From positions 1 through 22,640 of IMG/VR virus record IMGVR_UViG_3300028115_000129: DNA of 22,640 nucleotides. The stretch is one strand, 5' to 3'. This document shows, piece after piece, positions 1,418-22,351 of the stretch. Within the stretch, counting starts at the first letter, position 1; the number at the start of each line of letters is the position of its first letter. This DNA comes from a virus. The notes below the pieces were generated by a model, which saw only the letters and a list, made by a program, of their open reading frames with translations, was not told the DNA's origin and made no database searches. Both the position numbers and the translations under genes were made by a program.

Positions 1418-1425
1418 TATTTATG
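1418..1425 (-). promoter_or_regulatory. Late promoter core CATAAATA before the 145-aa gene
   Basis: It overlaps the stop of the repeat-fibre gene and matches the relaxed NATAAATA form. +1 at 1412 (A) would give a 26-base leader that carries GGAG and leads to the ATG at 1386. It would give the 145-aa gene, the glycosyltransferase and the left-edge gene their own late transcript. Confidence 0.55.
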
Positions 1426-2602
1426 CGATTCTTAAAAACAGTTTTTTAGATTCCTGTGTAGAAGAAGTTGCTTGAACCGTATCGCCAGCATAGTAGCCAG
1501 TATATGTTCCTGAATATGCACCAGTAAAGAAACCAGTGTAGTAACCAGTGTAGGTTCCGGCAAATACTGTACTATACGATCCTGCATATGTTCCTTCATA
1601 CGATCCTTCATAATACCCAGTATATGTACCGTCGAAATAGCCCCCAATAGAGCCCCCGTAAAATAATGTATATGAGCCAGTATAGTTTCCTGCATATGCA
1701 CCAGTGTAATAACCAGTGTAATTTCCAGTGAAGTAACCAGTATAATTACCCGTATAATCGCCTGCAAATGCAGTAGAATATGTACCACTGTATGAACCAG
1801 TATAGTTTCCTGCATATGCTACACTAACAATATCTTTTAACTGATCGGTTAGTGTTTCACCTCTTTGTTGCCAAGTACCACCAGATGTAGGGGCTGAAGT
1901 AGAAACTTCATAGCGACCAATGTTTGTCGCAACTACTCTGTTTCTAAATCTGTTGGTAAGACTTTGTAGTTCAGTATCCGAAAATTCTGCAACACTCTCG
2001 CCGTCAAATTTTGTGAGTGTTCTATTTGTAGCAGAAGCAGGTACTGTTGTTGCGGCAGTTTTTTGCCAAAGATACTTTGTTACAGTAGTTCCGTCAGTCT
2101 GAGTGTCATCAATTTGACCTCGACTGGTCCATGTACCGCCTGCAGGAGCAGATGCAGAAAGCCAATACTGACCAGCCGTATTCGCATCATCTGTAATCAT
2201 TGCATTAATTACATCATCAAGAATTTCAGAATCAATTTCCGCATCCGTTGATTCTACTATCTCTCCGTCAGAGTTTAGTCTTAGCGGTGTAGCAGTTTTA
2301 TTATCCGTTGCTACTCTAGTGTCTTCACCAAATGTATAAACAGTTGTTGACAATCCACCAGCCGCTGGGTGTGTACCAACAGCCTCAGTTCTTGTGCGGT
2401 CTGTAAATGTACCTATCGAGGTGAACCCAGAAGTAAGAGAACCTGTAGTAACTTCAATAGAAGCCGTTCCCACACTACTAGCGAATTCAGTGGTGATAAT
2501 GTTTGCAGTGTAATCCTTTTTTTCTGCGGTAGAAAGTTCCTGCAACCCCGAAATGTTACCTGAAGTTATATCACTTGTTTTTATCTTTAATGGGCCTGCC
2601 AT
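1421..2602 (-). CDS. Fibre-like protein with 28 Y-x-G-x tetrapeptide repeats (393 aa)
   Basis: Residues 1-145 begin AGPLKIKTSDITSGNISGLQ, a polar N-terminus that may attach to the virion. Two related segments follow: QYWLSASAPAGGTWTSRG (145-162) and RYEVSTSAPTSGGTWQQRG (230-248), a motif common in marine phage fibres. Residues 263-374 are 28 consecutive tetrapeptides of Y/F-x-G-x with no phase break. The last 19 residues (DTVQATSSTQ ... KLFLRIA) are a distinct cap. The repeats probably form an extended beta fibre with stacked aromatic rows. Four NYT tripeptides occur in the repeats. The start is ATG 2602, with AAAGGG about 11-12 bases upstream. Likely a tail or neck fibre; the receptor is unknown. 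Confidence 0.85.
   Translation of the reverse strand: MAGPLKIKTSDITSGNISGLQELSTAEKKDYTANIITTEFASSVGTASIEVTTGSLTSGFTSIGTFTDRTRTEAVGTHPAAGGLSTTVYTFGEDTRVATDNKTATPLRLNSDGEIVESTDAEIDSEILDDVINAMITDDANTAGQYWLSASAPAGGTWTSRGQIDDTQTDGTTVTKYLWQKTAATTVPASATNRTLTKFDGESVAEFSDTELQSLTNRFRNRVVATNIGRYEVSTSAPTSGGTWQQRGETLTDQLKDIVSVAYAGNYTGSYSGTYSTAFAGDYTGNYTGYFTGNYTGYYTGAYAGNYTGSYTLFYGGSIGGYFDGTYTGYYEGSYEGTYAGSYSTVFAGTYTGYYTGFFTGAYSGTYTGYYAGDTVQATSSTQESKKLFLRIA
1481..1816 (-). repeat. 336-bp coding array of 28 twelve-base units (Y-x-G-x)
   Basis: It encodes residues 263-374. Position 1 of each unit is Tyr or Phe except one Ile (IGGY), and position 3 is Gly except in YSTA, YTLF and YSTV. The 12-base periodicity is visible on the plus strand as recurring 'ccagtgta/ccagtata' strings. 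Variation at synonymous positions shows the array is old or selected at the protein level, not a fresh slippage product. Confidence 0.9.
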
Positions 2603-3481: not shown

Positions 3482-3682
3482 CTAGTTCTTTTCGATTAAA
3501 AATTGTAATGCTTTTTTAATTTCAGTAAGCTCTGATTTCAAACTATTTATATCATCCGTAATTTCATCAACCTTACCGAAAGCCCTTTTTTGTTTTCTAT
3601 ATTTAGCAAGCGCAGAGGGGTCTTGATTTTCAAATACCCCCGGCTCTACTTCTTTATATTTTAAATTTTCTACTGAATCCAT
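3482..3682 (-). CDS. Small coiled-coil protein (66 aa)
   Basis: 66 aa, highly charged. Residues ~1-38 (KYKEVEPGVFENQDPSALAK YRKQKRAF) are polar. Residues ~39-64 (DEITDDINSLKSELTEIKKA LQFLIE) show a heptad pattern of I/L residues expected of a coiled coil. The start lies two bases after the stop of the 2215-aa gene (TAA-TT-ATG), so it is probably translationally coupled. Small proteins of this shape occur near large tail genes of marine T4-like phages. I cannot assign a role; a trimerisation or chaperone function for the fibre proteins next to it is a guess. Confidence 0.75.
   Translation of the reverse strand: MDSVENLKYKEVEPGVFENQDPSALAKYRKQKRAFGKVDEITDDINSLKSELTEIKKALQFLIEKN
3544..3551 (-). 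promoter_or_regulatory. Late promoter core TATAAATA inside the 66-aa gene
   Basis: A perfect TATAAATA, followed by GTTTGA as in the copy at 10471-10464. +1 would be 3538 (A), giving a 66-base leader to the 283-aa fibre-like gene at 3472. It is intragenic, so function is uncertain. Confidence 0.42.
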
Positions 3683-3684
3683 AA

Positions 3685-6600
3685 TTAAGCCTGCATCGCT
3701 ATTGCTCTAAGATTTTTCACTGCGGGAACATTGCATGTGTTATCTGTAATTAACACAACCTTCACAGCGAAATCCTTAAAGCGATTAAATGTTATTTGGC
3801 TTACCGCAGCCGTTGCAGTTGCACCAGAGCCGCCGCCACCACTTAGAGTGATTGTAGGAGCACTGGTGTAACCTCTACCCGGTTCTGTAACTGTAATATC
3901 AACAACAGCTCCACCAGAAATTTTTGCAATAGCTTCTGCGGGCTTCCAAGCACCTCCACCAGAGAACAGAACCGTTGGCGCCGTTGTATAACCAGAGCCT
4001 CCTGCTGTAACTGATATTGAGCTAACTCTGTCTGCTACATACTCTAAAGTATCTCCTGCGACACCCCCAAGACCAACATTATCTGAACCTCTTTCGGGTA
4101 GAGTGTAAAGAGTTTCAACAAATGCTGAAGGATTCTTTAGATTCTCTCTATTGCTTTCTAGTTCCACCCAATACAAGTCTTCTCTAAAATCAGCATCGTC
4201 TTCTGCGGCTTTAAACTTAGCATACACTTTTACATCTGCATCATTTGGAACTCGTTGATCCAAATAAACTCTCAAATCTTCTGCTAAGTTTGCTTTGCTA
4301 AGACGAACAATTTTAGAAATATATTTACAATCTGCATCTCCACCATATCTTTCTTCTTCATTAGTAACAACATCGTTAATGATGTGCTTATCAAGGTTAA
4401 GCGCCGCCCTAGTGACATCAATAACGGGAGAAAGATAATTAGTATTCGTGTAAAAATCAACTTCTACCTTGAGAGATTTTGCCCCAGAAAAAGTGGAGCT
4501 CTCATTAGAATATGAGTAAATCGCACTTTCGCTCGGAGCCATCGCTGAGTCAGTTTCAGGCAAATCAACCGCTGTTGTTCCTGGCACTGCAACACCTGTG
4601 CTTTGAGTTGGGTAATATTTAAAGTTCAGTTTGCTTGTATTATGAACAATTGTTGTAAAGTTATAAATTGCTTTGTTGTAGACATTGTTATCCACAGAAA
4701 CAATTTCTGCCTGAGAAGTTCCTGAACCGACAATATCACCTGCTGAGAATGTGCCCTTAGTGACAGTAACTTCACACTCAGTCTGTCTGTTTAGGAATTC
4801 ATTTACACTAGCATTTTTTACAACAATAGTAAATGTAGCACCACTACCAGAGCCAGTTGTGCTTGACTGTGTTACTGCACTTGCAGGATCCTCAGTGTAA
4901 CCGCTACCCATATCTCCAATACTAAAGTCCGTAATTGCACCAGAAGATACGGCATCGACAATAATTGTCAATCCAGTGCCATTTCCAAAAGAGTTCAGAG
5001 TAATAACATCACTTACTGCATAACCAGAGCCCCCTCCTGCTAGAGTGACATCAAAAGAGTGAAGTTCATCGATGGCAGAGAAGAAACCGTTAGTAAAGTT
5101 TGTCATGCTCCAGTAATCGGTATCTTCATTATTAAGTATCGCGGTACCTCCAACTGGAGAAAACTTAGCTCTATTAATAACATACTTGACATCTTCTGCC
5201 TGCTTAGGACTCCAAGATCGATCATTTGAAGAAGTAAACAAGACTCCTGCCACAGAATCGCCTGCCTGAATTCTTTGTGTAGTTCCTAATTTACTTTGTC
5301 CTAACTCAGATACCCAAATATTGTAACCTGGGTCATTTGCTTGAGGTTTTAGTACAAAACAATATTCTTGTTCAGGAGACAAGAACACCGGTGACGGGAA
5401 TGTAAACTTAGTTGCACTAGTAGCATCTTCTGAAATAGATACTTGAGAAGGTGTCAGTACAACCTCTCCATAAGGAATAACATCAGAACCAGGGTATCCA
5501 TTAACCACATTGCGAAGTTCTAATGTGATATTATTCGTGCTTGACTTAGTTCTAAAGAATATATCAATATCAGTTATGAAAGCCCCATGACCGTTATTCA
5601 CAAAAAATGTTTGAGCGATGGGATCGGCCCAACCAGCGCCGCCGAACCAATTCCAGTCGAAATCTTCCCATTCTATTTGAAAGTCGTTGGGAATATCGAC
5701 CGCCGGATTATCCACTACCGGCGAGACTGAGTTATTGACCGGATTCTCTTCCGCTGACGGTTGATCCGGCGGGGGTAAAGGAGTTTCTCCAGCACCCTCA
5801 AGAATCGTAAAGCCCTCGTTAATATTTCTTTGAGATGTGCTTGTAGTTACCGCTGTGGACTGTTGTAACGAAACCCCTGTTGTAACGGAACCAATAGTTC
5901 TTGATCCGTTATTAACAAAATTCATCGTTACATTAGGTCTTTGCGTAAATAAACTTGTATTTTCTTTTGTGTAATTACCAGAAATAAACTGAGAGAATAC
6001 AGTATTACAAGAAGAAGTTACAAACCCTTCTCTGTTTTCGATATCGTCTGAAACAATAATCATTTTGTTTCCTAGAAGATATCTTCCTGAAGGTACATAT
6101 ATGTCTAAGATTAACGAGCCATCTGGGTCAGATACGACATAATCATTTGCAGAGCTTCTACTCCAGTCACAACTTTGTCCATTTTCGTCAGTACCAAATC
6201 CTTGTATTGAGGCATTGCTGTTCATCTTTGTAGTTGTAGACAGCCCATCCCAATAAGAAGTTTTTACTTTTCTGACTCTCGCAACAGTACTACCAGACAA
6301 GTTGGTAGAACCGGTTATTCTATCTCCGGGGTCGCCGCCATCAAAGAACACATAAAATCTTGTACTCGGCTTTAAGTTTCTACAATCAACTCTAAATCTC
6401 AACTGAGGAATATAGCTGTTGAAAGCAATGCCATTTACATAATCAAAGCTACCTTCAAATCTATTTCCCAAATTACCTGAAGTATTTACATTAAGGACTT
6501 CATTGACTTGTGTAAGTGTAGCATTAGATACAGTTAAGTTAGATGTAGTAACCGCTACTGAAGTGCTGGTGTATTCAATATCAGCAGTGTTCCTAATGGT

Positions 6601-9600
6601 ATCTCCAATGATTTCACCTTCTTCATTCAATAAAGGATTACCATTAGCATCTACCTCTGTTGAATCCGGTATTATTGTTTCTTCAAATGCACCTTTATCA
6701 ACAAATGTTGTTGTACTAGTTGCACTGGAAGTAGTAGTTTGCGTAGTAGGAACAGGAGTTCCCATTATAACATTGCTTCGTGTAACACCCGAATTGCCTA
6801 AGTTAGTAAACGCATTTCTGAGGGCTTCTGCTGAACCAGTTTGAACAATAGTATTTTGTGCAGTGTTTCCGCTCTGATTCCATCTAGTAACAGATGGGGG
6901 ATATGCATTTGCTTTACCTGTGTAGTCGAACAGCAAATCTCCAACAAGATTTCTCGGCTTCGATGCAAAACGATTCTCAGAAAACAATTCTGTCGTATAT
7001 GGGAGTGTAACAAGATTACCTGTTTTTACGGTGTTGGTAGAAGCCGCACTGTTATACTGAAGTTCAACATGAGTATTAGTTACTCTAGGACCGCCTTCAA
7101 AATATTGTTCGTCTATACCAAAATCTAAATCAGCATCAGATACCTGCATTAGGTCTGTATTGTTGAATGTATCAACAAAAAATCCATTTTTAAATCTGTC
7201 AAGACCATTTGCGTCTGTGATGTTTTTATTAGCAGTAGCAGTTTTTATAAAGTTCAAAGAAGAGTAATACTCCAGTCTTTGAATTCTTTTCTCAATAGAA
7301 GCAATGTCTTGCATTGTATATCTTCTATTCTGCTTAACATCAAGTTTTACTTGAAGATCCTCTCTTCCATACTGTTCTGCTAGAAGATTAGGAATAGAAG
7401 GATAAGCAGGAATGTAAATATCTGCAAGAGCCATACACTTTGGCGGCTTTAATGGGGGAACCGGATTGTTGTTCGGTTTACCCTCAATGTTAAGAACCTT
7501 TCCGCTGTCCTGTAAGACAATTGTATCAACTCTTCCTAACCAATATTCACCGTCAGTAACATAAGATTCTCTGGGCATCGGGAATTGATACCCGCCACTA
7601 ATAGTTCTAAAATTGAAATTAGCAGTTGGGTTTTCAGTAGCCGTTCCAATTGTTGTAGCATCGCTTGCTGTATTTACAATATAAGGTCTAAAATCAATGC
7701 AGTCTCGCAAATCATATAGAACAGATCCTTCTTTCAAGTGCAAGGGAATTTCATATGTGTAAAAGCTAGGATTAGCGGCAGTCAGTTCATCTGCCGGGTA
7801 TGAATCAACACAGAAATAAGTAGATTGACTCCCAGCATAGTTAGGATCCAAGTAGTGCAATTCTACTAGAATCTTCTTATTCGTTACATCTAGGCTGCCT
7901 CTTTTTATTAATTTAGAGTGACCATAATAGTTATCTGTTTGTCCATTACCATGAATGAACAAGTCTTTGTAGTTAGTAGTAGTGTTGTCATAAGTATCGC
8001 CGACATATACACCTACAATTTTATAAACATTACAAAGACCTAAATTCCATGGACCTGAATTTCCTTCAGGGTGTGTTGCTGTGTCAATTTTAACAAATCT
8101 AGATTTAAGTGCATTTAGAGGAACCGGTGTCGTATCTGTTTGTTTTACCTTAACATAAAATTTTACATCTGCTGTATTAGATAATATCGTACCTATATCA
8201 AATTGCATTGAAGTAGGACCAGCACTTGTAAAGTGAGATTCCTGTAAATCAAAAATCTGTCCAGCCGCATATGATGTACCATCAACAGTGACGGCTTCTT
8301 TGAAAATCATAATCCATTCATCATCCAACTGTGTCTGAGAAGGAGTTGTAGAATATGGGAAAGACTTGGTTCCACTCACACTAATTGTAGTGGTGCCTGT
8401 TGTTGTAAATGTCGCATCAAACTCTTCTTGATATGTAAAAGAGTTATCATATGTGTTAATGGGATCAACTCCAATAGTCTTCATCGCCTTAGCAGGCATT
8501 TTGAAAACCATTTGATTTCTTGCTTGATTAAATAGAATTGGAGAACCTACTCTATTATCAATAAGAACATCACCAGAGCCGTTAAAATTTGTTGTGTCCG
8601 ATGTAAAGTGAACGGAACGAATATCTGATAAAGCAGAGGAACCCATACGAATATCGTAAAGATACAGTCTGTATACTGCACTAGGTGACCCAGGATCACC
8701 ACTTTCTCTCGCAACATGTCTTACTCTAGCAGTTCCTACAGGGCTTGCCGGAGCCGCTACTGCACCAAATGTGCTACTTCTTGATGTTCCCAATGCATCA
8801 ACAATAAATGTTAAAGCAGGCGCACCGCCATTACCCAGTCTAGCATCAGGAATTGTGATCGTTTCAGTTGCAATAAATCCAGTGCCGCCTTCGATAATCT
8901 CTACTGTAGCCGCGCCGTTTTCATCAACACGGATCAAAAACTTTGCATCTGTTCCAGCACCACTAGTTGTGTAAGCACCAGGGCTGATTATATAAACGCC
9001 GAGTACTCGTAATGACTCTGCACCGGATATTGAAGTTACAGAAAGAATACCTGTAGTTGACATGTGAGCATTAAGTTCAGATGAACCAAATACAACCTGA
9101 GAAGTACCACTAACATCCCACTCGCCTGCTACATTATTAATGCGAATATAGTTACCATAAGTTGTAGAAGTTGTAATTCCTTCCTGTAACTTATAGTCAT
9201 TACCCTTTCTTACTTTTATATAACTAGGGGCTTCAATTTCTCGCAATCTTCCGTTAACGATGCCTCTTCCATCAGCAACACCCACAGCAAGATAATTAGC
9301 ATCGCCTCCTTGGTCTGCTGTCTTTAATCCACCGTTATCGTCATCCACATCTAAAAGATGTTCTCGGATATTAATCTTAAATTCTTTAATTGAATAGTTT
9401 CCACTTTCTAGGAAAGTTCTTTCGGCAATTCTATCGCCAATTTTACTATACAAGTCTAAATCTTTATCAACAACCGAAGTAGATTTTTTACCATCAATGA
9501 TAGTAAACAAACTTACAAAATTGTCTTCAAGGTCATCATCGAATTCTCTGACAGCTATTTCAGTGTATACTTTATATCTGTCAGCACCTGGTGCATTGAA

Positions 9601-10332
9601 GTTAAAAGTTCCCGTAGCAGGGTCAAGCAAAGTAGAGTCATCATCAGAAGTAATAATATCTTCTTTTATGAGAACGCCCACATAACAGTCTTTAAAGTTA
9701 CCAAAAGGCATGACTGCAATTGTTTGGTTTGCGTGTTCAATAAACTTGCCCTTGAAATAAATCAATCCGTCGTCAATTGAATAATCTACCGACTGCCCTC
9801 TATAGTGCTTTGATTTATCAAGACTTGTTTGTGTGTCTACAACAAAAGTATCGCCGTTTCTACCAGAATCGGTGCTAGTTACAGTAAGAACCTCTCCTGC
9901 TGTAAATCTTGTTTCTTCAGTTGTGGTAGAACCCTGTGTGTATTCAATGTAAAGGGTTTTCTTGTCAACTGTCTCACTATCTGAACCAGATTTAACTTTT
10001 TGAATGGTAGCAACAATTCCTGTTGTTCCACCAGTAACCGTATCACCCACATAAGTTGCTAGATTGTCATTAGAAATAGATGCGCCACCATTGTCAGCAT
10101 CATTTATTTTTACAAAGTGATAATTTCTTCTGACTTCTTTGCAGCCAAGAACAGGAGCGCCATCAACAAAGATATGCTCACCAAATCTTGATAGTTGATT
10201 CTGAAGGATAGTCTGTAGCTGAGTTAATTCTCTAGCCTGTACAGCATACCCTGGCTTAAAAAGAATTCTATTAAAATTCTTATCCGCGTCAAAATCATCA
10301 TAGTACGGACCGGTGTTTAGATTCAATGCCAT
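3685..10332 (-). CDS. Very large DUF4815-type baseplate/fibre structural protein (2215 aa)
   Basis: The start [20 protein letters not shown] then [34 protein letters not shown] is the DUF4815 signature of marine phages; that domain covers about residues 5-420. Residues ~429-515 are a Gly-rich module shared with the 1005-aa protein. Residues ~900-1110 hold CIDFRPYIV, then [20 protein letters not shown] and [20 protein letters not shown], probably a coiled coil. A Pro/Asn-rich linker (1512-1569) precedes [20 protein letters not shown], then [24 protein letters not shown] (1570-1690), a domain common to peripheral tail proteins of these phages. Gly/Tyr repeats recur at ~1764-1839 and ~2101-2178. 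It occupies the place of the T4 gp9-gp12 periphery and probably forms the outer baseplate and fibre attachment. The ATG at 10332 follows gp8 by 12 bases. Confidence 0.8.
3796..4030 (-). repeat. Gly-Tyr beta repeats, C-terminal copy in the 2215-aa protein
   Basis: Residues ~2101-2178 (approximate bounds): [23 protein letters not shown], then [20 protein letters not shown] and [12 protein letters not shown]. These are the most regular copies of the unit in the window. Confidence 0.78.
4816..5043 (-). repeat. Gly-Tyr beta repeats, central copy in the 2215-aa protein
   Basis: Residues ~1764-1839 (approximate bounds): [24 protein letters not shown], then [20 protein letters not shown] and [14 protein letters not shown]. 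Same unit as in gp8. Confidence 0.7.
5701..5723. repeat. GC-rich inverted repeat in the linker of the 2215-aa gene
   Basis: A perfect 6-bp inverted repeat (CGCCGG and CCGGCG separated by 11 bases) lies in a local GC-rich island: bases 5701-5820 are about 55% GC against about 40% overall. It encodes part of the Pro/Asn-rich linker. There is no T-run after either arm, so it is not a classical terminator. Confidence 0.4.
8788..9048 (-). repeat. Gly-rich module in the 2215-aa protein, shared with the 1005-aa protein
   Basis: Residues ~429-515 (approximate bounds). [20 protein letters not shown], then [20 protein letters not shown] and [20 protein letters not shown] parallel the module at residues ~437-506 of the 1005-aa protein block by block, including VDxxGAA and ITIPDxxLGxGGA. 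Confidence 0.75.
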
Positions 10333-10344
10333 TTTTTCTTTGCC

Positions 10345-11937
10345 TTAAAAATTTAAAATTACTTTAACAGTTTCTACTTGGTCTTGATCTCTTGTTATAG
10401 GTTTTCTGTTATCGATGTACATAACATCACCTGTATGTGCAGAGATTTCTGGTTCTGTCAAACTATTTATAGTCATTCCGGTAGTGCCTGTGTTTAAGTT
10501 ATTCAACACGGAACTCAGTGAAATTCCTGGATATATTTCTTGCAAATACACAGTATCGATTACATCATCGTTATCACTATCAATTTTTTGAATTACTCTA
10601 AACTGACCCCCGGAATTCACCGTTATAATGTCATCTAGATTGTAATCCCCAGGATTGGATACAGTGATAACATAACAAGGTGTACCAATTGTTTCTGTGT
10701 AAATAGCAGTCTCATCGTATGTAGTAATATTTTTCACCAAGCCAATTTGCCTGAATTCGTTACCTACAATAATGTCGTTATCTGTGCTTGTAAATGTTGT
10801 AGTAATACCTAAATTAGTAGCAAACAATTCTTTGGGTGGATTGCCCCCGTGCCCTTCATATGGACTAATAACGGGTCTAAGCACCGCGCCGGTGCCTGTA
10901 CCTGTTGTTTGCTCAAGTTCAATCACAGCAAAAGTATAGCCACTTCCAGTAGCAGTAATATCTATAGAGACAATAGAACCCGCGGCATTTACTGTAGCAC
11001 TTGCTGTTGCTCCGGTACCATCTCCTAGTATATTAACAACAACATCATTATTGATGTAGTCTTGACCACCTTCTGTAATAACAATTCTATCTACTGTTCC
11101 TGCGATAGCTGTAGATTCAACTGCTTGTTGTAGTGTAGGCGTTTCACTAGTTCCTAATTCTGGAGTTGCAGTTGCGCCCGTACCATCGCCTGAGATTGTG
11201 ATAAATGCAAAACTATAACCCCTACCAGCAGTATCAACTGTAATAGAGTCGATCTCCCCTGCTACAATATTAGCAGTCGCCGTAGCACCTGTTCCATCAC
11301 CTTGTATAACTACAGTAGCAGTAGTGTAACCTGTACCTGCTGTAGCAACCGCAATAGATGCAATTTCTCCATTAACATCAAATTCTGGTTGACCAGCACC
11401 TGCTACTTTTCTCACAGGAATATATCTACTAGATAAAAACTTAGTTCTATCAGCCGCACCTATTTGATATAAAAACTTCCAAACATAGCCATCGCTTAAT
11501 TCAAAAGTATCTGTTCCTGTAGAAGTAGGTTTCTCTGTACTCGGTGAATTATTGTTATTGTTTAAGCACTTATAAACATTAAATTCATCTGTCAATACAA
11601 AAAATTTGGCATCTGCTAGATTGGTAGCACCAGAGTAGGCTGGATGATCGCTTGCATACTCATCATCATACTGGTCATAGATTGTATTAATTTCCCAATC
11701 ATACCTATTAGCCAACAGAACCGCATCCGACGCCTCAACTTTTTTAATAAAAAGCATGTCATGTTTATAAGTCTGCACATAATACTGTGAGTCTCTAGGC
11801 GTTTCAGGCGCATTTTCATCGTCCCAAGGTTGAGCCCTAGAGACAAACATATAATAAAAGTCGTTTTCGTTATAAATGTCTCGATAAAACGACCTAGCTA
11901 ATTGTTGACGACCAGTTCTTCTGACTAGCAATGCCAT
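10345..11937 (-). CDS. 8: gp8 baseplate wedge subunit with an inserted beta-repeat domain
   Basis: 530 aa, against 334 aa for T4 gp8. Typical gp8 segments flank an insert. The N-terminal part has FYRDIYNENDFYYMFVSRAQ PW, VLTDEFNVYKCLNNNN and SDGYVWKFLYQIGAADRTKF (residues 1-178). The C-terminal part has VGNEFRQIGLVKN and DVMYIDNRKPITRDQDQVET ending VKVILNF (residues ~356-530). Between them, residues ~191-354 form four Gly/Tyr beta repeats, and removing these gives roughly the T4 length. T4 gp8 is a wedge dimer that links gp7 and gp6 with the gp10 periphery. AGGAG lies seven bases before ATG 11937. A late promoter core for the next gene lies within its 3' end. Confidence 0.92.
   Translation of the reverse strand: MALLVRRTGRQQLARSFYRDIYNENDFYYMFVSRAQPWDDENAPETPRDSQYYVQTYKHDMLFIKKVEASDAVLLANRYDWEINTIYDQYDDEYASDHPAYSGATNLADAKFFVLTDEFNVYKCLNNNNNSPSTEKPTSTGTDTFELSDGYVWKFLYQIGAADRTKFLSSRYIPVRKVAGAGQPEFDVNGEIASIAVATAGTGYTTATVVIQGDGTGATATANIVAGEIDSITVDTAGRGYSFAFITISGDGTGATATPELGTSETPTLQQAVESTAIAGTVDRIVITEGGQDYINNDVVVNILGDGTGATASATVNAAGSIVSIDITATGSGYTFAVIELEQTTGTGTGAVLRPVISPYEGHGGNPPKELFATNLGITTTFTSTDNDIIVGNEFRQIGLVKNITTYDETAIYTETIGTPCYVITVSNPGDYNLDDIITVNSGGQFRVIQKIDSDNDDVIDTVYLQEIYPGISLSSVLNNLNTGTTGMTINSLTEPEISAHTGDVMYIDNRKPITRDQDQVETVKVILNF
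10464..10471 (-). promoter_or_regulatory. Late promoter core TATAAATA inside the gp8 3' end
   Basis: A perfect TATAAATA, followed by GTTTGA, within the gp8 coding region. +1 would be at 10458 (A), giving a 126-base leader to the 2215-aa gene. The 14-base string TATAAATAGTTTGA also occurs at 3551-3538, a second intragenic copy. It could drive the 2215-aa gene, but chance occurrence in AT-rich coding DNA is possible. Confidence 0.4.
10876..11367 (-). repeat. Four Gly-Tyr beta repeats inserted in gp8
   Basis: Residues ~191-354 of gp8. Each unit is about 35-40 residues: a strand (SIAVATAGTGYTTATVVI, SITVDTAGRGYSFAFITI, RIVITEGGQDYINNDVVVNI, SIDITATGSGYTFAVIEL) followed by a loop GDGTGATATA or a variant (the fourth has TGTGTGAVL). 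The repeats lie between recognisable gp8 halves, so they look like an in-frame domain insertion. Confidence 0.85.
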
Positions 11938-11961
11938 GTTCTAACTCCTATTAGTTAATTA

Positions 11962-12417
11962 TTAGGTGTCAGAAACAGTAATAGTCCAGGTAATTTTTAG
12001 CGTATCGTCCGAGCCTTTGTTGACTACAGAGAACACGGTACGACAAAGCATTGTACCAGCAGAAGCCGCATTAAAAACCCCAGCCTCTACAATAGCACCT
12101 GTACCTGTGCCTGCAGGGAAATCGCCAACATACTCAATAGCATTGTCAGTGACAGTAGTACTGGTCAGCGAAACTCTAGAGCCAGAGATGAGAGAGCCAA
12201 GAGCAGTATCGCCTGCCGCCGGTGCTGTGTTATCAGTACCAACTTCCATGTGAGACATTACTGCATCAGTAGTGCCTTCCATGCGAGATGCGATAAAGTC
12301 AAGACCAGTATCAACAACAAGGTTGTTTACAACTTGCTCGTTTTTAATTTTACCTTCAGGTGAGATAAGCTGTAACTTAACTTTACCTTTGGCATTAGTT
12401 TTGGATAAATTAAACAT
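11962..12417 (-). CDS. Small virion structural protein (151 aa)
   Basis: A 151-aa, Thr/Ala/Gly-rich, probably all-beta protein. It opens KGKVKLQLISPEGKIKNEQV then VNNLVVDTGLDFIASRM, and continues with HMEVGTDNTAPAAGDTALGS, FPAGTGTGAIVEAGVFNAAS and AGTMLCRTVFSVVNKGSDDT. This pattern (viral 'N-V-V-x-x-G-L-D-x-I-A-S', 'AP-x-x-x-DTAL', 'EAG-x-FN-x-x-x-x-GTML-x-R') occurs in small structural or fibre-associated proteins of many phages. I know no defined biochemical role for it. It stands alone between the gp7-position gene and gp8 with its own late promoter, which suggests many copies per virion. A peripheral baseplate or fibre-attachment protein is possible. AGGAG lies about 11 bases before the ATG. 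Confidence 0.86.
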   Translation of the reverse strand: MFNLSKTNAKGKVKLQLISPEGKIKNEQVVNNLVVDTGLDFIASRMEGTTDAVMSHMEVGTDNTAPAAGDTALGSLISGSRVSLTSTTVTDNAIEYVGDFPAGTGTGAIVEAGVFNAASAGTMLCRTVFSVVNKGSDDTLKITWTITVSDT

Positions 12418-12454
12418 TTTTAGATTATCTCCTGATTATAAAATGTTGTTTATA

Positions 12455-12462
12455 TATTTATA
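12455..12462 (-). promoter_or_regulatory. T4-type late promoter core TATAAATA before the 151-aa gene
   Basis: A perfect TATAAATA, three bases beyond the stop of the 1005-aa gene. T4 spacing gives +1 at 12449 (A) and a 32-base leader holding AGGAG ahead of the ATG at 12417. This is the best-placed promoter in the window: motif, start base, leader and Shine-Dalgarno all agree. Confidence 0.72.
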
Positions 12463-12465
12463 CGG

Positions 12466-15400
12466 TTAAAAGGTAGTGGATGAAACTCCAGGATAACTTT
12501 CTACATAATCTTCAGCAAAATAGTCTCCATTAACATAATTTTGCATATACAACAAGCCGGTATCCGACACTTCATAGTCATCTGCTTTGGACGCATCAAA
12601 AACAAACACAGAAGGATCAGTAAATGATACTGACTCTTCTTTAAGTGCCGAAATAAATTTTTCAAAACTTGTATCATCAACATCGGTTGTCTCTGCTTTA
12701 TTTAGTTGTGGTTCTAAACTAGGCAGATCATCGACTACTACATCGTCTGTTTTATTTAGCTGTGCTAATATAGCAACAAATTCAGTAGTATCAACAGAAT
12801 CCGATGGAATTCTTTGAATAAGTTTTAACAATTCTATTACTTCAGATAAATCTACGGAATCCGCAATCGTTGGTTTCGTAAGGTCTTTGGCAACCAATTC
12901 CAACATATCTGGATTATCAGTTTTCTGCATTGTAACATCAAAACGATATACCGTATCATCCATATCCGGGGTTTCAAATTTCCCTAGTCCGGGTTCTAAT
13001 ATAGCTTCATCATCTTGTGTAGCAAAAGAATCCGTAATATTGGGCTTATGGAATGCAAGTTCAACTAACTCGGTTACTTCAACCGGGTCAAGCGGAACAA
13101 AAATTCTAAAGACAAGCAAGTCTGGGACAATAGTAAAGTTACTAGCAAAATCGATATCTTGTAAAATCTGCAAGTCTGAAAATGCAATCATGCCTGCAGG
13201 GTTGGCAGTTCTAGTTAAAAGATCGCCCCAAGTGTTTTTAGAAAGAGAGGATCTTATTTGATAAGAATAAGATTGATATATTCTATTGTCTTGTAATTTA
13301 TTTGCATCAGACAAAAATCCTCTAGAATCTCTAAATCTACCTGGATAAGTATGAGAGAAACCAGTATTGCAATTTATTATTGTAGTTTCACCTAAATCAC
13401 TGGTACAAGTAAACTCAAATTCTGGTCTTTGAAAACCAACACCCGTAGCGATGATTTCAAAACCTGTTGGGTAACCAGAATCATTTATCGTAGTAATTCT
13501 TACATACGCATTGTTATCAATACCCGTGATCGTATAATCTTCAGCAAAGTAGTCAATAGCGTATACACCTAGTATATCACCTGTTTCAGCAATTTTAAAA
13601 GTGTCTCCTACAGAAAATCCGCCCTGTGCGGCACCGCTATTACTAACAACAGTTACACCAGTCAATACTCTTGTAAGAAATGCTTTTTTGTTGTTAATAT
13701 CGTCAAGTGTATTTTCATCTGCTATGTAAGTTCTATAATCAGATGTGTCTAACAAGAGTATAGGTTGGTTGTTGTATCCTTCCCCGCCGTCTAATATAAC
13801 AACACTTGTAACAACACCATCGGTAAGTCTAACACCTAAGTCAGCAGGCGTTGTGATAGTATCATTACTATCTGGTAATATTAAAATGTCTGGATTCGCA
13901 CTATATCCTTGTCCACCATTTGTGACGGTTACACTGTATATTTTGCCTTCTGTTATATCATCAACATCGAATGTCAAGTCTGCGGCACCACCGGAACCTA
14001 ACAAACTATCGGGTATAGTGATTGTCTCGCCGGGAGCGTAATCGTCACCAACGGTATCGACCGTTATACTGGCAGCACCCACGCCGTCTACAACAACCGT
14101 AAATTCTGCTCCAGTGCCGTTACCATCTGTAGTGAATCCAGAATCAATGTCATAAGTTCCTGCAACTCGCAAAACATCAGCAGAGCCTATATTTGTTACA
14201 GTTGATATCTTACCACCCAAAACCGCAGAAACCTCTCCCTCAACACCATAGCCTGGAATCTGTGTTCCTGCAGGCACATCAATAGTCAGTTCGTATGCTG
14301 TGGGATTTGTATAAGCAATCTTTTTACTTCTCAGAACAGATGTATTAATTTTTTCGCGGCTTGTTATAGAAGCATTGGACTCATAGTAGTAAATATCTAC
14401 TTTTCTTCCTCGAAAATCTAAGGGGTTATACGATCCGCCATCTGTTCTTTCTATGTTTTCATAAACTTTAATTGTTGTTTCTTCAGACCAATATCCATCA
14501 GAAGGTCTGAGAACATATTCAGACGGTTTAAATACTTCAACCTCTTCACCATATATCATTCTGAAGAAGGTCTTTATACTTTCTCTTGAACCTTTGGATG
14601 AATAAAAATCTCGTATTCTTTTAATAAGAAGTCTAGTATCGATTTGATTATCTTCAGGAAAATCGATTGCATATTGCTGTAGTAGAGATTCTAAGAAGTC
14701 TCCGTGATAATGTGTTACACTAAATCTGTCAATTAACTCCTGTAGAACATAATTAGGAGATGCAGTGGATGTTCCGATTGATTGTGTGTAATCATCATCT
14801 GCATCTAAAAAATTAAAATAGGTTGCAATGAAGTCTGCATACTTAGGATACTCATTTCTAATCCATTCTGGTATTTCAAATTCTGCAATATAAGAAAAGT
14901 TTTGATGAAAGTATTGTTGCGGTCTATTAATAAAATCAATTGCAGGTGTTAGAATGGCACCCGAACCACCGCCAGAAATGCTTGTAACGGTTAATATTAT
15001 ATTCGCCGCATCGCCCGTCCCACCAATGTTAGTGTCGGGAATAATAATCAAATCACCTTCAGCATATCCCGAACCTTTTGTGGTTACTGTCGCACCTGTA
15101 ACCTCGCCACTTGAATTTACTACAATTCTAAACTCAGCACCTGAGCCAACACCATCAGAAGAAGATCCAACCCCCGTATAAACTCCAGTTCCCCTGTTCT
15201 CGTCTGCTTGTGCTTCAAAGGTTACTGTAGACAAAGAGCCTATAAGTTTTACATCTGGTAGTGTTTTATATCCATTGCCAGGCTCTGTGATTGTGACAGA
15301 ATCAACAATGTTATTGACGATTTCTAATTCAGCAACTGCCTGTATATTTTCAGATACCTCGGTTGTATCATTGGGCACCGAAATGTATACAGAAGGCGGA

Positions 15401-15483
15401 TCGGAACTACTGTAGCCGCTTCCCGCATCTGTAATTTCAATAGACTGAATATATCGTCTAAAATTTGGTCCGGTTCTAGCCAT
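12466..15483 (-). CDS. Large baseplate wedge protein in the gp7 position
   Basis: 1005 aa, between gp6 and gp8 as T4 gp7 (1032 aa) is. Residues 1-175 and ~424-575 are Gly/Tyr-rich beta repeats (ITDAGSGYSSSD, ITEPGNGYKTLP, VTNGGQGYSANP). The core, residues ~195-345, includes YFHQNFSYIAEFEIPEWIRN, FNFLDADDDYTQ, LLIKRIRDFYSSKGSRESIK and FFRMIYGEEVEVFKPSEYVL. I associate that block with wedge proteins of marine T4-like phages. Residues ~795-985 form a degenerate acidic repeat (LNKTDDVVVDDLPSLEPQLN). It is likely a wedge or peripheral baseplate component bridging gp6 and gp8. Equivalence to T4 gp7 is inferred mainly from position and size; direct similarity is not obvious by eye. The start overlaps the gp6 stop (TAATG). 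Confidence 0.8.
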   Translation of the reverse strand: MARTGPNFRRYIQSIEITDAGSGYSSSDPPSVYISVPNDTTEVSENIQAVAELEIVNNIVDSVTITEPGNGYKTLPDVKLIGSLSTVTFEAQADENRGTGVYTGVGSSSDGVGSGAEFRIVVNSSGEVTGATVTTKGSGYAEGDLIIIPDTNIGGTGDAANIILTVTSISGGGSGAILTPAIDFINRPQQYFHQNFSYIAEFEIPEWIRNEYPKYADFIATYFNFLDADDDYTQSIGTSTASPNYVLQELIDRFSVTHYHGDFLESLLQQYAIDFPEDNQIDTRLLIKRIRDFYSSKGSRESIKTFFRMIYGEEVEVFKPSEYVLRPSDGYWSEETTIKVYENIERTDGGSYNPLDFRGRKVDIYYYESNASITSREKINTSVLRSKKIAYTNPTAYELTIDVPAGTQIPGYGVEGEVSAVLGGKISTVTNIGSADVLRVAGTYDIDSGFTTDGNGTGAEFTVVVDGVGAASITVDTVGDDYAPGETITIPDSLLGSGGAADLTFDVDDITEGKIYSVTVTNGGQGYSANPDILILPDSNDTITTPADLGVRLTDGVVTSVVILDGGEGYNNQPILLLDTSDYRTYIADENTLDDINNKKAFLTRVLTGVTVVSNSGAAQGGFSVGDTFKIAETGDILGVYAIDYFAEDYTITGIDNNAYVRITTINDSGYPTGFEIIATGVGFQRPEFEFTCTSDLGETTIINCNTGFSHTYPGRFRDSRGFLSDANKLQDNRIYQSYSYQIRSSLSKNTWGDLLTRTANPAGMIAFSDLQILQDIDFASNFTIVPDLLVFRIFVPLDPVEVTELVELAFHKPNITDSFATQDDEAILEPGLGKFETPDMDDTVYRFDVTMQKTDNPDMLELVAKDLTKPTIADSVDLSEVIELLKLIQRIPSDSVDTTEFVAILAQLNKTDDVVVDDLPSLEPQLNKAETTDVDDTSFEKFISALKEESVSFTDPSVFVFDASKADDYEVSDTGLLYMQNYVNGDYFAEDYVESYPGVSSTTF
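13759..14214 (-). repeat. Gly-Tyr beta-repeat module, second block of the 1005-aa protein
   Basis: Residues ~424-575. It contains VLRVAGTYDIDSGFTTDGNG, GTGAEFTVVVDGVGAASITV, then ETITIPDSLLGSGGAADLTF, followed by SVTVTNGGQGYSANPDILI and SVVILDGGEGYNNQPILLL. The first half matches residues ~429-515 of the 2215-aa protein closely ([20 protein letters not shown] there). Confidence 0.78.
14989..15450 (-). repeat. Gly-Tyr beta-repeat module, N-terminal block of the 1005-aa protein
   Basis: Residues ~12-165. Units of the form I-x-x-V/I-x-x-x-G-x-GY occur at SIEITDAGSGYSSSDPP, SVTITEPGNGYKTLPD and GATVTTKGSGYAEGD. The last belongs to a longer module (GSGAEFRIVV ... LIIIPDTNIGGTGDAANIIL) that recurs later in the same protein and in the 2215-aa protein. 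Confidence 0.75.
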
Positions 15484-17402
15484 TAGGAATCAATTACCTT
15501 AGGTTTGGCGCTAACAGTAATGCCAGCAAAAATATTGTTAGGAATATTAGAAGTTGTTGTATCTAGGTTTAGTATAATATTTTTTGATGGTTTGGCTAAA
15601 ACGGCTGCACCAGTCGAAGAAAGTTCTGTAGAAGAAACTAAAAATTCAGTTCTAATATCTTTGGCAGATTCATGTGGTGTTACGGTAACATTTAGAGTAG
15701 ATGAAGCGTTCAGCAAACTTTGAACATTTAAGTCTGTTAAAACAACTTTACCAGTATCATAGTCGATTGTGCCAGCATTGCTGTTCACAATTTCTCCGCC
15801 CGCAGAAGTTTTTAGTATGATTTTACCGGTTCCACTATAAAGAGGGGGAATTACATTAGAGTTTGGGACATCTGCCATAACAACTTTGTAAACTTTTCCA
15901 TTTATAGTAACATTGAAAAAATTACTAAACAATGCATAGGGGTTTATCTTATTATTGAAATCAAAGGTATATTTAAGACTGCGGTTAAAAGTTGGTATTA
16001 CTCTTTTTTGTAATCGCAAGGAAAGGTTAGTTCCTATAACCGACTTATTTGCTGTGACAATTTCACTAGCAAGTTTAGAATAATAAAAAGTAGATTCTAA
16101 AGAGTTAAGAGTATTATTGAAGAAATTGTTGATAATTGTACGCACAGAGGATTCAATTTCACCGGCTGTAGAAGTGGTTCTCTTTGAATCGTAATCTACC
16201 GTTACATCCATCCCGATATATGTATACTCAGGGTCTACAAATTCAGTCAATATCGAAACGGGCTGTCTTGGCTCAATGTAATCTCTGAGAATATTTGCTT
16301 TATCGTCTTCTGTAATTACAAGACCTTCTTTAGGCTGAAGAGATACAAACACCTTACCATATATAGGAGGATCATTATATTCGCCTCCCCAAACAGCAAC
16401 CGATTTTACATTAGGGTTGTTTTGTAGAATGAGAGACTTGTAATCATTTGCAGTCACCGCTCTATTTTTTGTTGCGTTAAATCTCGGAGCACTAAATCTG
16501 ATGCTATCAACAGATTCTTGAGGAGCACCACCTGAAGAGGGTGAAACAACTTCTAAACTCACCGTAGAACCCACTCCTGTCAAGCCAGAAGGAGGAGTAA
16601 ATACTTTAGCACCATTTCCTAAAGCGGCATTCGTAGCAATATAATCAAGCCTAACAACATTTCCAACTTCAAGTGCTTTACCTATAGTTCCGTCTCCAAA
16701 AACTACCTGATAAAATCCGTTTAGGGCTTCTTCAATAAAAAAGATTTCACTAGTGGAAGATACATCAATAATACTGTCTGAAAAGTTATAAGTTACAATA
16801 CTAGTATCAGTAAGAGACTTTTGAATTCTACATCTAATTGTAGTAGTATCCACAGCAGGGTTTGCCATTAGCACAGGACCTTGAACACTTGTAAGTTCTA
16901 CTAGCTCAGAGTTTTTTACAATAGTACCCTCAACAAGAACAACATTAGTAAAAGCAAAAACTTCAGTACCATCATCTAACAATGTTTTGTTTACTACATA
17001 GTCCGTTTCTGGGTAAAAGGATAATTTTTTCCCGTTAAGAAGAGTTGTAAAAAGCGATTCTCTAGTGAGAGAAAAGCTACTAGAAGAATAAGCAGGATCT
17101 GGTACAACAGTTAAATTAACGGTTGCTCTAGCCGCTCTCGCTGATCTAGCCGTATATCCCATAGTCTTTGCAATAGATGCAACCGAGGATCTTTTTACAG
17201 CAGAGTCCAAAAACGCTTCATTGGCGGTCATGTGTGCCAACACAGCATTGTAATGTGTATTATAAGCAAGTAGGTCAATCAGAACGGAGAGACCAGAGGC
17301 TTCAAAGTCATAGTCCTGAAATTGTTCTTGGTCTTGAAGATAAAGTTTTAGATTATTCTTTATACCTTCAAAATCTAATTCTGTTAGTCTTTTCGTTGCC
17401 AT
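15483..17402 (-). CDS. 6: gp6 baseplate wedge subunit
   Basis: 639 aa, close to T4 gp6 (660 aa). gp6 dimers form the inner ring that joins the wedges and drives the dome-to-star change of the baseplate. Diagnostic stretches are FQDYDFEASGLSVLIDLLAY and NTHYNAVLAHMTANEAFLDS near the N-terminus, then AVKRSSVASIAKTMGYTARS. These are conserved in gp6 and in J-like baseplate proteins. The middle holds SVDSIRFSAPRFNATKNRAV and TANDYKSLIL (residues ~300-330), the classic baseplate-J core motif. The C-terminal part (KYTFDFNNKINPYALFSNFF, then GTIDYDTGKVVLTDL) is as in marine T4-like gp6. ATG 17402 is preceded by GAGAGAAG. Its stop shares one base with the start of the 1005-aa gene (TAATG). Confidence 0.94.
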   Translation of the reverse strand: MATKRLTELDFEGIKNNLKLYLQDQEQFQDYDFEASGLSVLIDLLAYNTHYNAVLAHMTANEAFLDSAVKRSSVASIAKTMGYTARSARAARATVNLTVVPDPAYSSSSFSLTRESLFTTLLNGKKLSFYPETDYVVNKTLLDDGTEVFAFTNVVLVEGTIVKNSELVELTSVQGPVLMANPAVDTTTIRCRIQKSLTDTSIVTYNFSDSIIDVSSTSEIFFIEEALNGFYQVVFGDGTIGKALEVGNVVRLDYIATNAALGNGAKVFTPPSGLTGVGSTVSLEVVSPSSGGAPQESVDSIRFSAPRFNATKNRAVTANDYKSLILQNNPNVKSVAVWGGEYNDPPIYGKVFVSLQPKEGLVITEDDKANILRDYIEPRQPVSILTEFVDPEYTYIGMDVTVDYDSKRTTSTAGEIESSVRTIINNFFNNTLNSLESTFYYSKLASEIVTANKSVIGTNLSLRLQKRVIPTFNRSLKYTFDFNNKINPYALFSNFFNVTINGKVYKVVMADVPNSNVIPPLYSGTGKIILKTSAGGEIVNSNAGTIDYDTGKVVLTDLNVQSLLNASSTLNVTVTPHESAKDIRTEFLVSSTELSSTGAAVLAKPSKNIILNLDTTTSNIPNNIFAGITVSAKPKVIDS

Positions 17403-17421
17403 TTCTTCTCTCGTTTTGTTT

Positions 17422-17429
17422 TATTTATT
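17422..17429 (-). promoter_or_regulatory. Late promoter core AATAAATA before gp6
   Basis: AATAAATA on the minus strand, overlapping the PAAR stop codon, fits the relaxed NATAAATA form reported for marine T4-like phages. T4 spacing predicts +1 at 17416 (A), giving a 14-base leader that contains the GAGAGAAG Shine-Dalgarno of gp6. Confidence 0.55.
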
Positions 17430-17715
17430 ACACGCCAATTTGGACTGTTGGATTGAATGTAGTTGTAACTGGTCCCCCGCATCCCGCAACGGAACCTTGA
17501 AAAGCAACCCCCTTACCATTAATTCTAACTGTTGCTGAGCCAGTAGCAATCGCATTTGTAGGGTGTGTAGTAGCTCCTGATGTGTGGGTTGTTACCACAT
17601 CGCCCTGTAATAAAATAGGCGAACCTCCTGATAAGACAGTAGCGTTGCTGGGTGTGATTGCACCTGTTCCTGCTGTATCTACTACTGTTCCTGGAGCAAT
17701 TGCAACTGAAGGCAT
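17428..17715 (-). CDS. 5.4: PAAR-repeat spike-tip protein (gp5.4-like)
   Basis: 95 aa, Gly/Thr/Val-rich, with the order expected of PAAR proteins: an AIAPGTVVDTAGTG entry loop, SGGSPILLQGDVVTTHTSGA with a second His (H44, H51), ATVRINGKGVAFQGSVAGCG with Cys79, and a final FNPTVQIG strand. PAAR proteins fold into a small cone that caps the beta-helix spike (T4 gp5.4, 97 aa; VgrG tips in type VI secretion) and bind a metal through His and Cys. H44, H51 and C79 are candidate ligands. The usual His after the first GD/VD is replaced by Thr14. Its start overlaps the gp25 stop by one base (TAATG), with GAGGAG nine bases upstream. It should sit on the spike at 20429-18993. Confidence 0.9.
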   Translation of the reverse strand: MPSVAIAPGTVVDTAGTGAITPSNATVLSGGSPILLQGDVVTTHTSGATTHPTNAIATGSATVRINGKGVAFQGSVAGCGGPVTTTFNPTVQIGV

Positions 17716-18107
17716 TATCGCAGTCTCCTCAAAGATGTTTGAAAAATTTGAGGCTCTCTTACTCCCATTACATGAAAGTTAATTTGAATTTTGTATTCTT
17801 GTGAATTGTAATCAGGATACACAATAACTTTATCTATTCTAACTCTCCTTTCAAAGTTATCAAAAGTCTCTTCAATGAGAGAAGCCATAGCACCAGCTGT
17901 TGACGAATCCATTGGTTCAAACAACAAATCGTAAATTGGAGAACCATAATTAGGCGTAAAGGGCTTGCTGTAATATGGAGTAAGCAAAAGATTTTTCATC
18001 GCCTGCTTTACTGCATTTACATCTACCTTTTTATAGATGTCTCCTGTGACAGGATTGAGTGAAAAACTCATATCTATGTCGGAGTAAATTCTGGTTGTAT
18101 TAGCCAT
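17715..18107 (-). CDS. 25: gp25 baseplate wedge / sheath-initiator protein
   Basis: A 130-aa member of the GPW/gp25 family, matching T4 gp25 (132 aa) in length. It begins IYSDIDMSFSLNPVTGDIYK, continues with KPFTPNYGSPIYDLLFEPMD (residues ~48-67), and ends in a C-terminal beta region. T4 gp25 sits in the wedge core bundle with gp6 and gp53 and provides the first strand for the sheath handshake. The EPR motif seen as NYEPRI in T4 reads NFERRV here (residues 84-89): Glu and Arg are kept but the Pro is Arg. No clear Shine-Dalgarno lies at normal distance from ATG 18107; AAAAAGG is about 15 bases away. The stop overlaps the PAAR start as TAATG. Confidence 0.94.
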   Translation of the reverse strand: MANTTRIYSDIDMSFSLNPVTGDIYKKVDVNAVKQAMKNLLLTPYYSKPFTPNYGSPIYDLLFEPMDSSTAGAMASLIEETFDNFERRVRIDKVIVYPDYNSQEYKIQINFHVMGVREPQIFQTSLRRLR

Positions 18108-18112
18108 ATGTT

Positions 18113-18120
18113 TATTTATA
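18113..18120 (-). promoter_or_regulatory. T4-type late promoter core TATAAATA before gp25
   Basis: A perfect TATAAATA on the minus strand in the 20-base gap between the 284-aa gene and gp25. In T4 the core spans -13 to -6, which puts +1 at 18107, the A of the gp25 ATG. It may serve gp25 as a leaderless message or mainly the PAAR and gp6 genes downstream. Confidence 0.6.
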
Positions 18121-18127
18121 TACCTTT

Positions 18128-18982: not shown

Positions 18983-18992
18983 ATTATCCCCC

Positions 18993-21835: not shown

Positions 21836-21837
21836 TA

Positions 21838-22347: not shown

Positions 22348-22351
22348 TTAA

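What the first reader, a model, noticed from the sequence alone, without database searches (positions are those of the whole stretch)
1481..1816. Unbroken 28-unit Y-x-G-x tetrapeptide fibre
Residues 263-374 read as 28 consecutive tetrapeptides with Tyr/Phe at position 1 (one Ile) and Gly at position 3 (three exceptions), with no phase slip. Position 1 is aromatic in 27 of 28 units. A period of four does not match the usual collagen-like or hexapeptide beta-helix repeats, so the fold may be an unusual thin fibre with aromatic ladders. Three non-Gly units (YSTA, YTLF, YSTV) could mark kinks or inter-subunit contacts.
Basis: partly seen in the sequence, partly recalled or inferred. Interest (0 to 1): 0.62.

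Follow-up and report, generated by a model that had tools for sequence, protein, structure and literature searches.

The report
Self-pairing giant hairpin phage fibre
A marine virus of bacteria carries a protein whose Tyr-x-Gly-x repeats appear to form two equal arms that fold back and zip against each other through a simple residue-pairing rule, a way of building viral fibres that I could not find described.

Summary
The array is real: residues 263-374, 28 tetrapeptides, no phase slip. It is more than a linear repeat. It is inserted as a giant loop into the second copy of a duplicated ~85-residue module; the last 19 residues are that module's closing strand. The single non-aromatic unit (IGGY) is always unit n/2+1: this holds in all 23 distinct short relatives, at eight array lengths (12-40 units). 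In long relatives (arms up to ~760-1030 residues) an irregular or globular tip usually sits at the midpoint with equal arms (582/582, 733/734).

The arms pair antiparallel in one exact register (Tyr of first unit opposite Tyr of last). Arg faces Gly, Ser or Phe and almost never Arg; Tyr faces Tyr. The register, fixed beforehand, ranked first of 31 shifts in 13 of 15 held-out proteins. AlphaFold2 of a short relative draws the same hairpin and register, with modest confidence in the arms. No Pfam, NCBIfam, PHROG or PDB-sequence family fits.

Best reading: a tail-fibre-like protein in a T4-like baseplate cluster, whose shaft is a self-complementary beta-hairpin with its tip at mid-chain. The three non-Gly units are not kinks; each faces a Phe unit. 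Oligomeric state, 3D packing and host binding are untested.

The parts
1421..2602 (-). Whole gene, 393 aa: N-terminal region, duplicated module (D1, D2), two-arm Y-x-G-x array, 19-residue C-terminal cap
   Evidence: ORF list; complete relatives with the same order of parts
2027..2293 (-). Module copy D1 (about res 104-192); its closing hairpin has a short turn (DTQTDGTT)
   Evidence: Profile comparison D1 vs D2-joined: probability 98.6, E 8e-16 (on relatives including this protein); in L061 the D1 hairpin strands are 163-173/179-189
1817..2026 (-). Module copy D2, first part (about res 193-262), interrupted by the array
   Evidence: alignments A2 and A3
1649..1816 (-). N-arm: units 1-14 (res 263-318)
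   Evidence: pairing register
1637..1660 (-). Apex: units 14-15, YGGS|IGGY (res 315-322); likely turn G316-G317-S318 with Y315 opposite I319
   Evidence: Only non-aromatic unit, always unit n/2+1 in 23 relatives; AF2 turn in L061 at 301-307, apex 305|306
1481..1648 (-). C-arm: units 15-28 (res 319-374)
1424..1480 (-). C-terminal cap TVQATSSTQESKKLFLRIA (res 375-393), closing strand of D2; TIxx...ETYTLYVRxA in distant relatives
   Evidence: Conserved at the exact C-terminus of relatives; aligns with the last strand of D1; strand to 358 of 360 in the L061 model
1769..1780 (-). Unit 4 YSTA, facing unit 25 FTGA (1517-1528)
1661..1672 (-). Unit 13 YTLF, facing unit 16 FDGT (1625-1636), just before the apex
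1565..1576 (-). Unit 21 YSTV, facing unit 8 FTGN (1721-1732)
3482..22633 (-). Neighbouring genes: T4-like baseplate/tail cluster (PHROG baseplate wedge, hub/tail lysozyme, PAAR and tail tube cap families), same strand as the array gene
   Evidence: PHROG matches

Best explanation
The gene encodes a tail-fibre-like protein of a T4-like marine phage. An ordinary closing hairpin of its second base module has been extended by Y-x-G-x units into a long two-arm antiparallel beta-ribbon. The chain leaves the base, runs up 14 units, turns at YGGS|IGGY and runs back 14 units to finish the same module. The arms are held in register by side chains facing each other: Tyr opposite Tyr at position 1 and at least one Gly in each facing position-3 pair. 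In long relatives Arg sits opposite Gly, Ser or Phe and is kept away from Arg. The shaft is lengthened by matched changes in both arms and bears its exposed tip, often a globular domain, at mid-chain. SHOWN by sequence: equal arms, apex at the midpoint, module interruption, the antiparallel register and pairing preferences. SUPPORTED by prediction: a beta-hairpin. INFERRED: assembly in oligomers (probably trimers, as in other phage fibres), an extended shaft of roughly 18 nm here and up to about 340 nm in the longest relative (0.33 nm per residue), and recognition of the host by the tip.
For: Midpoint: in 23 short relatives of eight lengths (12, 18, 20, 22, 28, 32, 36, 40 units) the one non-aromatic unit is always n/2+1. 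In 20 clusters of long relatives the largest irregular segment lies at the midpoint (median deviation 2%, KS p 1.8e-9; arms 582/582, 733/734, 705/708, 469/472, 762/768). Phage C48C1: N-arm 1033, C-arm 1075 regular residues, 1035 without a tandem-duplicated stretch. Register: Gly-vs-Arg density is anticorrelated between arms at the mirror register in 10 of 11 proteins (minimum r within +-8 residues -0.55 to -0.82; combined p <= 5e-5); parallel control |r| <= 0.15, within-arm lags >= -0.25. Pair counts: R-R 6/43 (position 1) and 19/135 (position 3); R:G 439/244; F:R 255/93; S:R 199/96; Y:Y 331/199. Held-out test: the register ranked first of 31 shifts in 13 of 15 non-redundant arrays. Short family: a non-Gly unit faces a Phe unit in 40 of 68, against 31 of 436 for Gly units (log odds 2.9; -1.8 and -2.1 one unit away); permutation p <= 5e-5. 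Module interruption. AF2 of L061: strands 251-300 and 308-358, pTM 0.79, the same register (300+308 = 608).
Against: No experimental structure. AF2 confidence in the arms is modest (pLDDT 47-69 in L061; under 50 over res 272-362 of the window protein, where base strands sum to 636-637 rather than the expected 634). Exceptions to equal arms: L012 (854 aa), L018, L040, L045 (936 aa), L075, L097; L015 shows no anticorrelation and two held-out proteins do not choose the register. The window array has no Arg, so its own evidence is the midpoint and three Phe matches. A hydrophobicity test of the register was inconclusive. Tail-fibre role rests on gene neighbourhood and architecture only.
Confidence: 0.8

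Rival explanations
1. Same pairing, but compact: the hairpin of short members folds over itself into a beta-sandwich (jelly-roll-like) head rather than an extended shaft; only the giants are true fibres.
For: VIA-align matches of the L061 array region (265-340) are to cupins, seed globulins and nucleoplasmin-like cores, so the monomer model is not a straight ribbon.
Against: All Z <= 4.0 and no Foldseek match at E <= 0.001; the model is a monomer with arm pLDDT 47-69. Arms of 582-768 residues keep the same register and would not fit one sandwich.
Confidence: 0.25
2. Arms pair between chains: each N-arm pairs with the C-arm of a neighbouring subunit (domain-swapped oligomer).
For: Sequence covariation in a homo-oligomer cannot tell intra- from inter-chain contacts. 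Phage fibres are usually trimers (general knowledge).
Against: The AF2 monomer forms the contact within one chain; the apex looks like a tight turn.
Confidence: 0.2
3. A linear, parallel fibre in which the arms never meet.
For: Alternating Tyr/Gly suits many beta-fibres; phage shafts known to me run linearly from base to tip.
Against: Equal arms about the midpoint and exact antiparallel residue complementarity have no reason to exist; parallel control flat.
Confidence: 0.04
4. The symmetry is a by-product of duplication or recombination between the two halves, without structural pairing.
For: 40-unit members carry a near-copy of N-arm units 2-10 at C-arm units 31-39.
Against: The relation in long members is complementary, not similar (Arg faces Gly, G-G and R-R are depleted), and units are aligned antiparallel, whereas duplication gives parallel similarity.
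Confidence: 0.03

Closest known systems
T4 long and short tail fibres (gp34-gp37, gp12) and other trimeric phage fibres
   Same: Long, repetitive, beta-rich protein encoded beside T4-like baseplate genes; very variable length; tip domains that differ between relatives
   Different: As far as I know those run N to C from base to tip. Here both chain ends are at the base and the tip is mid-chain; no PHROG or Pfam match to fibre families
T4 gp5 C-terminal triple-stranded beta-helix (octad VxGxxxxx)
   Same: Alternating large residue and Gly two apart; period 4 is half an octad
   Different: gp5 is a linear strand wound in a trimer (general knowledge); this array has an apex and an antiparallel return
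Beta-hairpin stems of barrel-forming pore proteins (aerolysin type)
   Same: Works like: amphipathic hairpin with equal arms extending from a globular module
   Different: No sequence relation; arms here reach hundreds of residues, carry a tip insert and a residue-pairing code; nothing suggests a membrane pore
Phage C48C1 (Kyanoviridae) WJE88074.1, 'hypothetical protein', 3347 aa
   Same: Homologous base module, Y-x-G/R-x arms, same C-terminal cap
   Different: Giant, Arg-rich arms, five extra globular inserts in the C-arm; the only record hit in the phage collection

Membership tests
Collagen-like (Gly-X-Y) | Gly every third residue | tested here: not met
   Period is 4; identity at lags 3 and 6 is 0.06 and 0.04
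Pentapeptide-repeat (Rfr) and hexapeptide beta-helices | Period 5 or 6 (coil of about 20 or 18) | tested here: not met
   Identity at lags 5, 6, 18 is 0.07, 0.04, 0.04; no Pfam match. Lag 20 is 0.41 only as a multiple of 4
Triple beta-spiral (adenovirus/reovirus-type shaft) | Repeat of about 15 residues | tested here: not met
   Identity at lag 15 is 0.10
T4 gp5-type triple-stranded beta-helix | Linear chain with no return strand | tested here: not met
   Centred apex and antiparallel cross-arm register
T4 gp5-type triple-stranded beta-helix | Shared solved fold | tested here: inconclusive
   Foldseek and VIA-align of monomer models gave only weak, unrelated matches
MORN repeats and other curated repeat families | Profile match above cut-off | tested here: not met
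   No Pfam or NCBIfam family reaches its curated cut-off for this protein or five long relatives
Phage tail fibre proteins (as a functional class) | Gene in tail/baseplate cluster | tested here: met
   PHROG baseplate and tail families throughout 10345-22633
Phage tail fibre proteins (as a functional class) | Sequence match to a fibre family | tested here: not met
   Best PHROG hits E 0.2, unknown function
Phage tail fibre proteins (as a functional class) | Present in virion, trimeric, binds host | not testable with these tools
   Needs virion proteomics, multimer structure, binding assay
Barrel-forming hairpin stems | Amphipathic antiparallel hairpin extending a globular module | tested here: met
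   (resemblance of working principle only)

The most novel reading that the evidence does not exclude
A residue-pairing code in protein: Tyr:Tyr, Arg:Gly, Arg:Ser, Phe:Arg and Thr:Gly opposition lets two antiparallel stretches of one chain, up to about 760-1030 residues each, find one register and build a fibre of almost any length with its receptor-binding tip at mid-chain.
Probability: 0.6. Interest if true: 0.92.

Novelty: categorically new. Interest (0 to 1): 0.85.

Why it matters
If right, this is a fibre-building principle I know no precedent for: the shaft is a self-complementary hairpin whose arms obey a simple facing-residue code and whose length can change freely as long as both arms change together. 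It would explain a large group of uncharacterised giant proteins in marine phages (the second-round scan found 218 relatives and kept 80), tell annotators where to look for the tip (mid-chain, not the C-terminus), and offer a modular repeat with a built-in register for designing long protein ribbons. The code makes exact, cheap predictions (which residues touch), so it can be tested directly. 'Categorically new' refers to the shaft architecture; the biological role, a phage fibre, is a known kind.

Tried and rejected
Family searches: Pfam, PHROGs, NCBIfam and PDB sequences gave nothing credible for this protein or five long relatives; scattered PHROG/NCBIfam hits to long relatives look like composition matches. 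Fold searches of both AF2 models: no PDB or BFVD match at E <= 0.001; VIA-align Z <= 4.0. These do not show that the fold is new. First mirror test on residue classes was swamped by the trivial period; replaced by Gly-vs-Arg densities and facing-pair counts. Phe/hydrophobic register test inconclusive. 'Both non-Gly never face each other' in short members: 0 against 5.1 expected, but also 0 at shifts -2 and +3, so weak. Tip and insert domains: only one insert, in L097, resembles a carbohydrate-binding domain (CBM_4_9, E 0.003, below the Pfam cut-off; PHROG tail protein 4e-14). Genome contigs of bacteria/archaea: no relative. The downstream 149-aa gene was guessed to be a fibre chaperone; it does not match C48C1's chaperone or Pfam. 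Papers: no description found (pelagimyophage and metaviromic-island papers PMC7029224 and PMC3909814 read); the library holds open-access papers only.

Full report
OBSERVATION. The minus-strand ORF 1421-2602 encodes 393 residues; residues 263-374 (1481-1816) are 28 tetrapeptides without a phase slip, aromatic at position 1 in 27 and Gly at position 3 in 25. The period is far outside shuffled sequence, and the DNA of 27 of 28 units differs, so the repeat is kept at the protein level.

SURROUNDINGS. Upstream on the same strand lie genes matching PHROG families for baseplate wedge subunits, hub/tail lysozyme, a PAAR protein and a tail tube cap, so the gene sits at the end of a T4-like baseplate/tail cluster. 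Downstream are a 149-aa ORF of unknown function and a weakly glycosyltransferase-like ORF. The window is a virus record of 22,640 bases.

RELATIVES. Scans of viral contigs brought in 48, 56 and 78 loci (the last kept 80 of 218 confirmed matches); these overlap between scans. No bacterial or archaeal genome contig had one. Among phage records only C48C1 (Kyanoviridae) matched, with a 3347-residue hypothetical protein. Arrays run from 12 units to more than 350 units in open frames. Distant relatives mix Y/F-x-G-x with Y-x-R-x, R-x-S-x and S-x-R-x units, always alternating, and end in the same 19-20 residue C-terminus, T[IV]...ETYTLYVRxA.

THE ARRAY INTERRUPTS A MODULE. The protein has two copies of a module of about 85 residues. 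Copy 1 (D1) ends in a short-turn hairpin: GTW...DTQTDGTT...LWQKTA. Copy 2 (D2) starts alike, GTWQQ.GE..TDQ, then comes the array, then TVQATSSTQESKKLFLRIA. A profile of D1 aligns with D2 joined across the array with probability 98.6 and E 8e-16; most of the score comes from the first part (E 1.7e-15 without the cap), and the cap extends the alignment to the end of the module. So both ends of the array lie in one small domain, and the chain must come back.

THE TURN IS AT THE MIDDLE. In 23 distinct complete short relatives, of 12, 18, 20, 22, 28, 32, 36 and 40 units, the only unit with a non-aromatic first residue is always unit n/2+1, within an apex motif such as YGGS|IGGY, FGGY|LNGA or FSGY|SGTS (the 23 are counted). 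In long relatives a segmentation of the array found the largest irregular stretch at the midpoint in most of 20 clusters (median deviation 2%, KS p 1.8e-9). Examples of N-arm/C-arm lengths: 582/582 (L043), 733/734 (L033), 705/708 (L044), 469/472 (L016), 762/768 (L042). In C48C1 one of six inserts is at the midpoint: N-arm 1033 regular residues, C-arm 1075, or 1035 without a 40-residue stretch belonging to a 75-residue tandem duplication; the five other inserts are all in the C-arm. Exceptions are L012 (854 aa), L018, L040, L045 (936 aa), L075 and L097.

THE ARMS PAIR. In long relatives, Gly-rich stretches of one arm lie level with Arg-rich stretches of the other. After removing slow trends, correlation at the mirror register is -0.55 to -0.82 in 10 of 11 proteins, with combined p <= 5e-5 against random circular shifts. 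A parallel pairing shows |r| <= 0.15 and within-arm lags no less than -0.25. At residue resolution the best register is the same in 8 of 11 proteins: Tyr of the first unit faces Tyr of the last unit before the cap (two of the eight have a 20-residue cap). Facing pairs, observed/expected: position 1, Y:Y 331/199, F:R 103/39 and 152/54, R:R 6/43, F:F 17/49; position 3, G:R 201/110 and 238/133, S:R 122/53 and 77/43, G:T 32/13 and 46/18, R:R 19/135, G:G 46/109.

HELD-OUT TEST. The third scan was made after the rule was fixed. Among 15 non-redundant complete arrays sharing little sequence with the earlier ones, the predicted register ranked first of 31 phase-compatible shifts in 13. R-R fell to 1.5% of core pairs, against 5-8% at other shifts.

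THE SHORT FAMILY AND THIS PROTEIN. Short members have almost no Arg. There, a unit whose third residue is not Gly faces a unit starting with Phe in 40 of 68 cases, against 31 of 436 for Gly units (log odds 2.9; -1.8 and -2.1 one unit away). With one protein per lineage it is 24 of 39 against 19 of 255, permutation p <= 5e-5. In the window protein YSTA(4) faces FTGA(25), YTLF(13) faces FDGT(16) and YSTV(21) faces FTGN(8). So the three odd units are matched features, not kinks.

STRUCTURE PREDICTION. AF2 of the window protein gave a good N-terminal part and an array of pLDDT under 50. AF2 of the 18-unit relative L061 with 22 sequences gave mean pLDDT 83 and pTM 0.79, with strands 251-300 and 308-358 joined by a turn at 301-307. 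The apex predicted from sequence is 305|306 and the register sum from the long relatives would be 608, which equals 300+308. Short members lack the Arg code, so this agreement is not circular, though the alignment itself contains the symmetric arms. Arm confidence is modest (47-69). VIA-align sees weak jelly-roll-like resemblance, so a folded-over hairpin is possible for short members.

MECHANISM. Shown: module interruption, equal arms, central apex, one antiparallel register, facing-residue preferences. Supported: beta-hairpin. Inferred: the ribbon assembles with others, probably as a trimer; aromatic rungs and Gly holes pack the shaft; the mid-chain tip, which in many relatives is a globular insert differing between lineages, meets the host. 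One L097 insert resembles a carbohydrate-binding domain, but that ORF is cut by the contig end and its place relative to the midpoint is unknown.

NOVELTY. No curated family, PDB sequence or paper in the held library describes it. The paper library is open-access only and fold searches cannot prove a new fold. I rate the shaft architecture categorically new and the role, a phage fibre, as known in kind.

Noticed in passing
L106 (Phage C48C1) res 2017-2126 of the 3347-aa ORF: A 75-residue stretch is repeated in tandem without change; it may be an assembly artefact, and without it the two arms match to 2 residues (1035 vs 1033).
   Followed up: partly
L106 res 1810-3259: Five globular inserts of 123-242 residues sit only in the C-arm, like side branches, while the N-arm has none.
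   Followed up: partly
L055, L057, L058 (40-unit members), units 2-10 and 31-39: A nine-unit segment occurs in both arms at mirror levels but in the same reading direction, suggesting that arms lengthen by matched copying.
   Followed up: no
L040 and L045 (936-aa ORF): Arrays split as about 120, insert 131-136, 117, then 127-149 residues: three regular stretches, which the two-arm model does not explain.
   Followed up: no
L036:2-6424: A 2141-residue open frame with a 12-residue super-repeat (YTGEYTGVPEEP) over hundreds of residues, very acidic, without the usual cap in the stretch held.
   Followed up: no
L075-L091: A group whose arrays contain repeated PSTPGTP spacers between Y-x-G-x units.
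   Followed up: no
L012, L018, L024, L025, L046, L088, L095: Several phages carry two paralogous fibre genes of this family in tandem with different arm lengths.
   Followed up: no
L014 long array: One-residue phase slips at YTNYVNAF-like motifs, possibly beta-bulges; only roughly mirrored between arms.
   Followed up: no
window 243-956 and 949-1398: A weakly glycosyltransferase-like ORF (Pfam E 0.04, below cut-off) and a 149-aa ORF of unknown function follow the array gene.
   Followed up: partly
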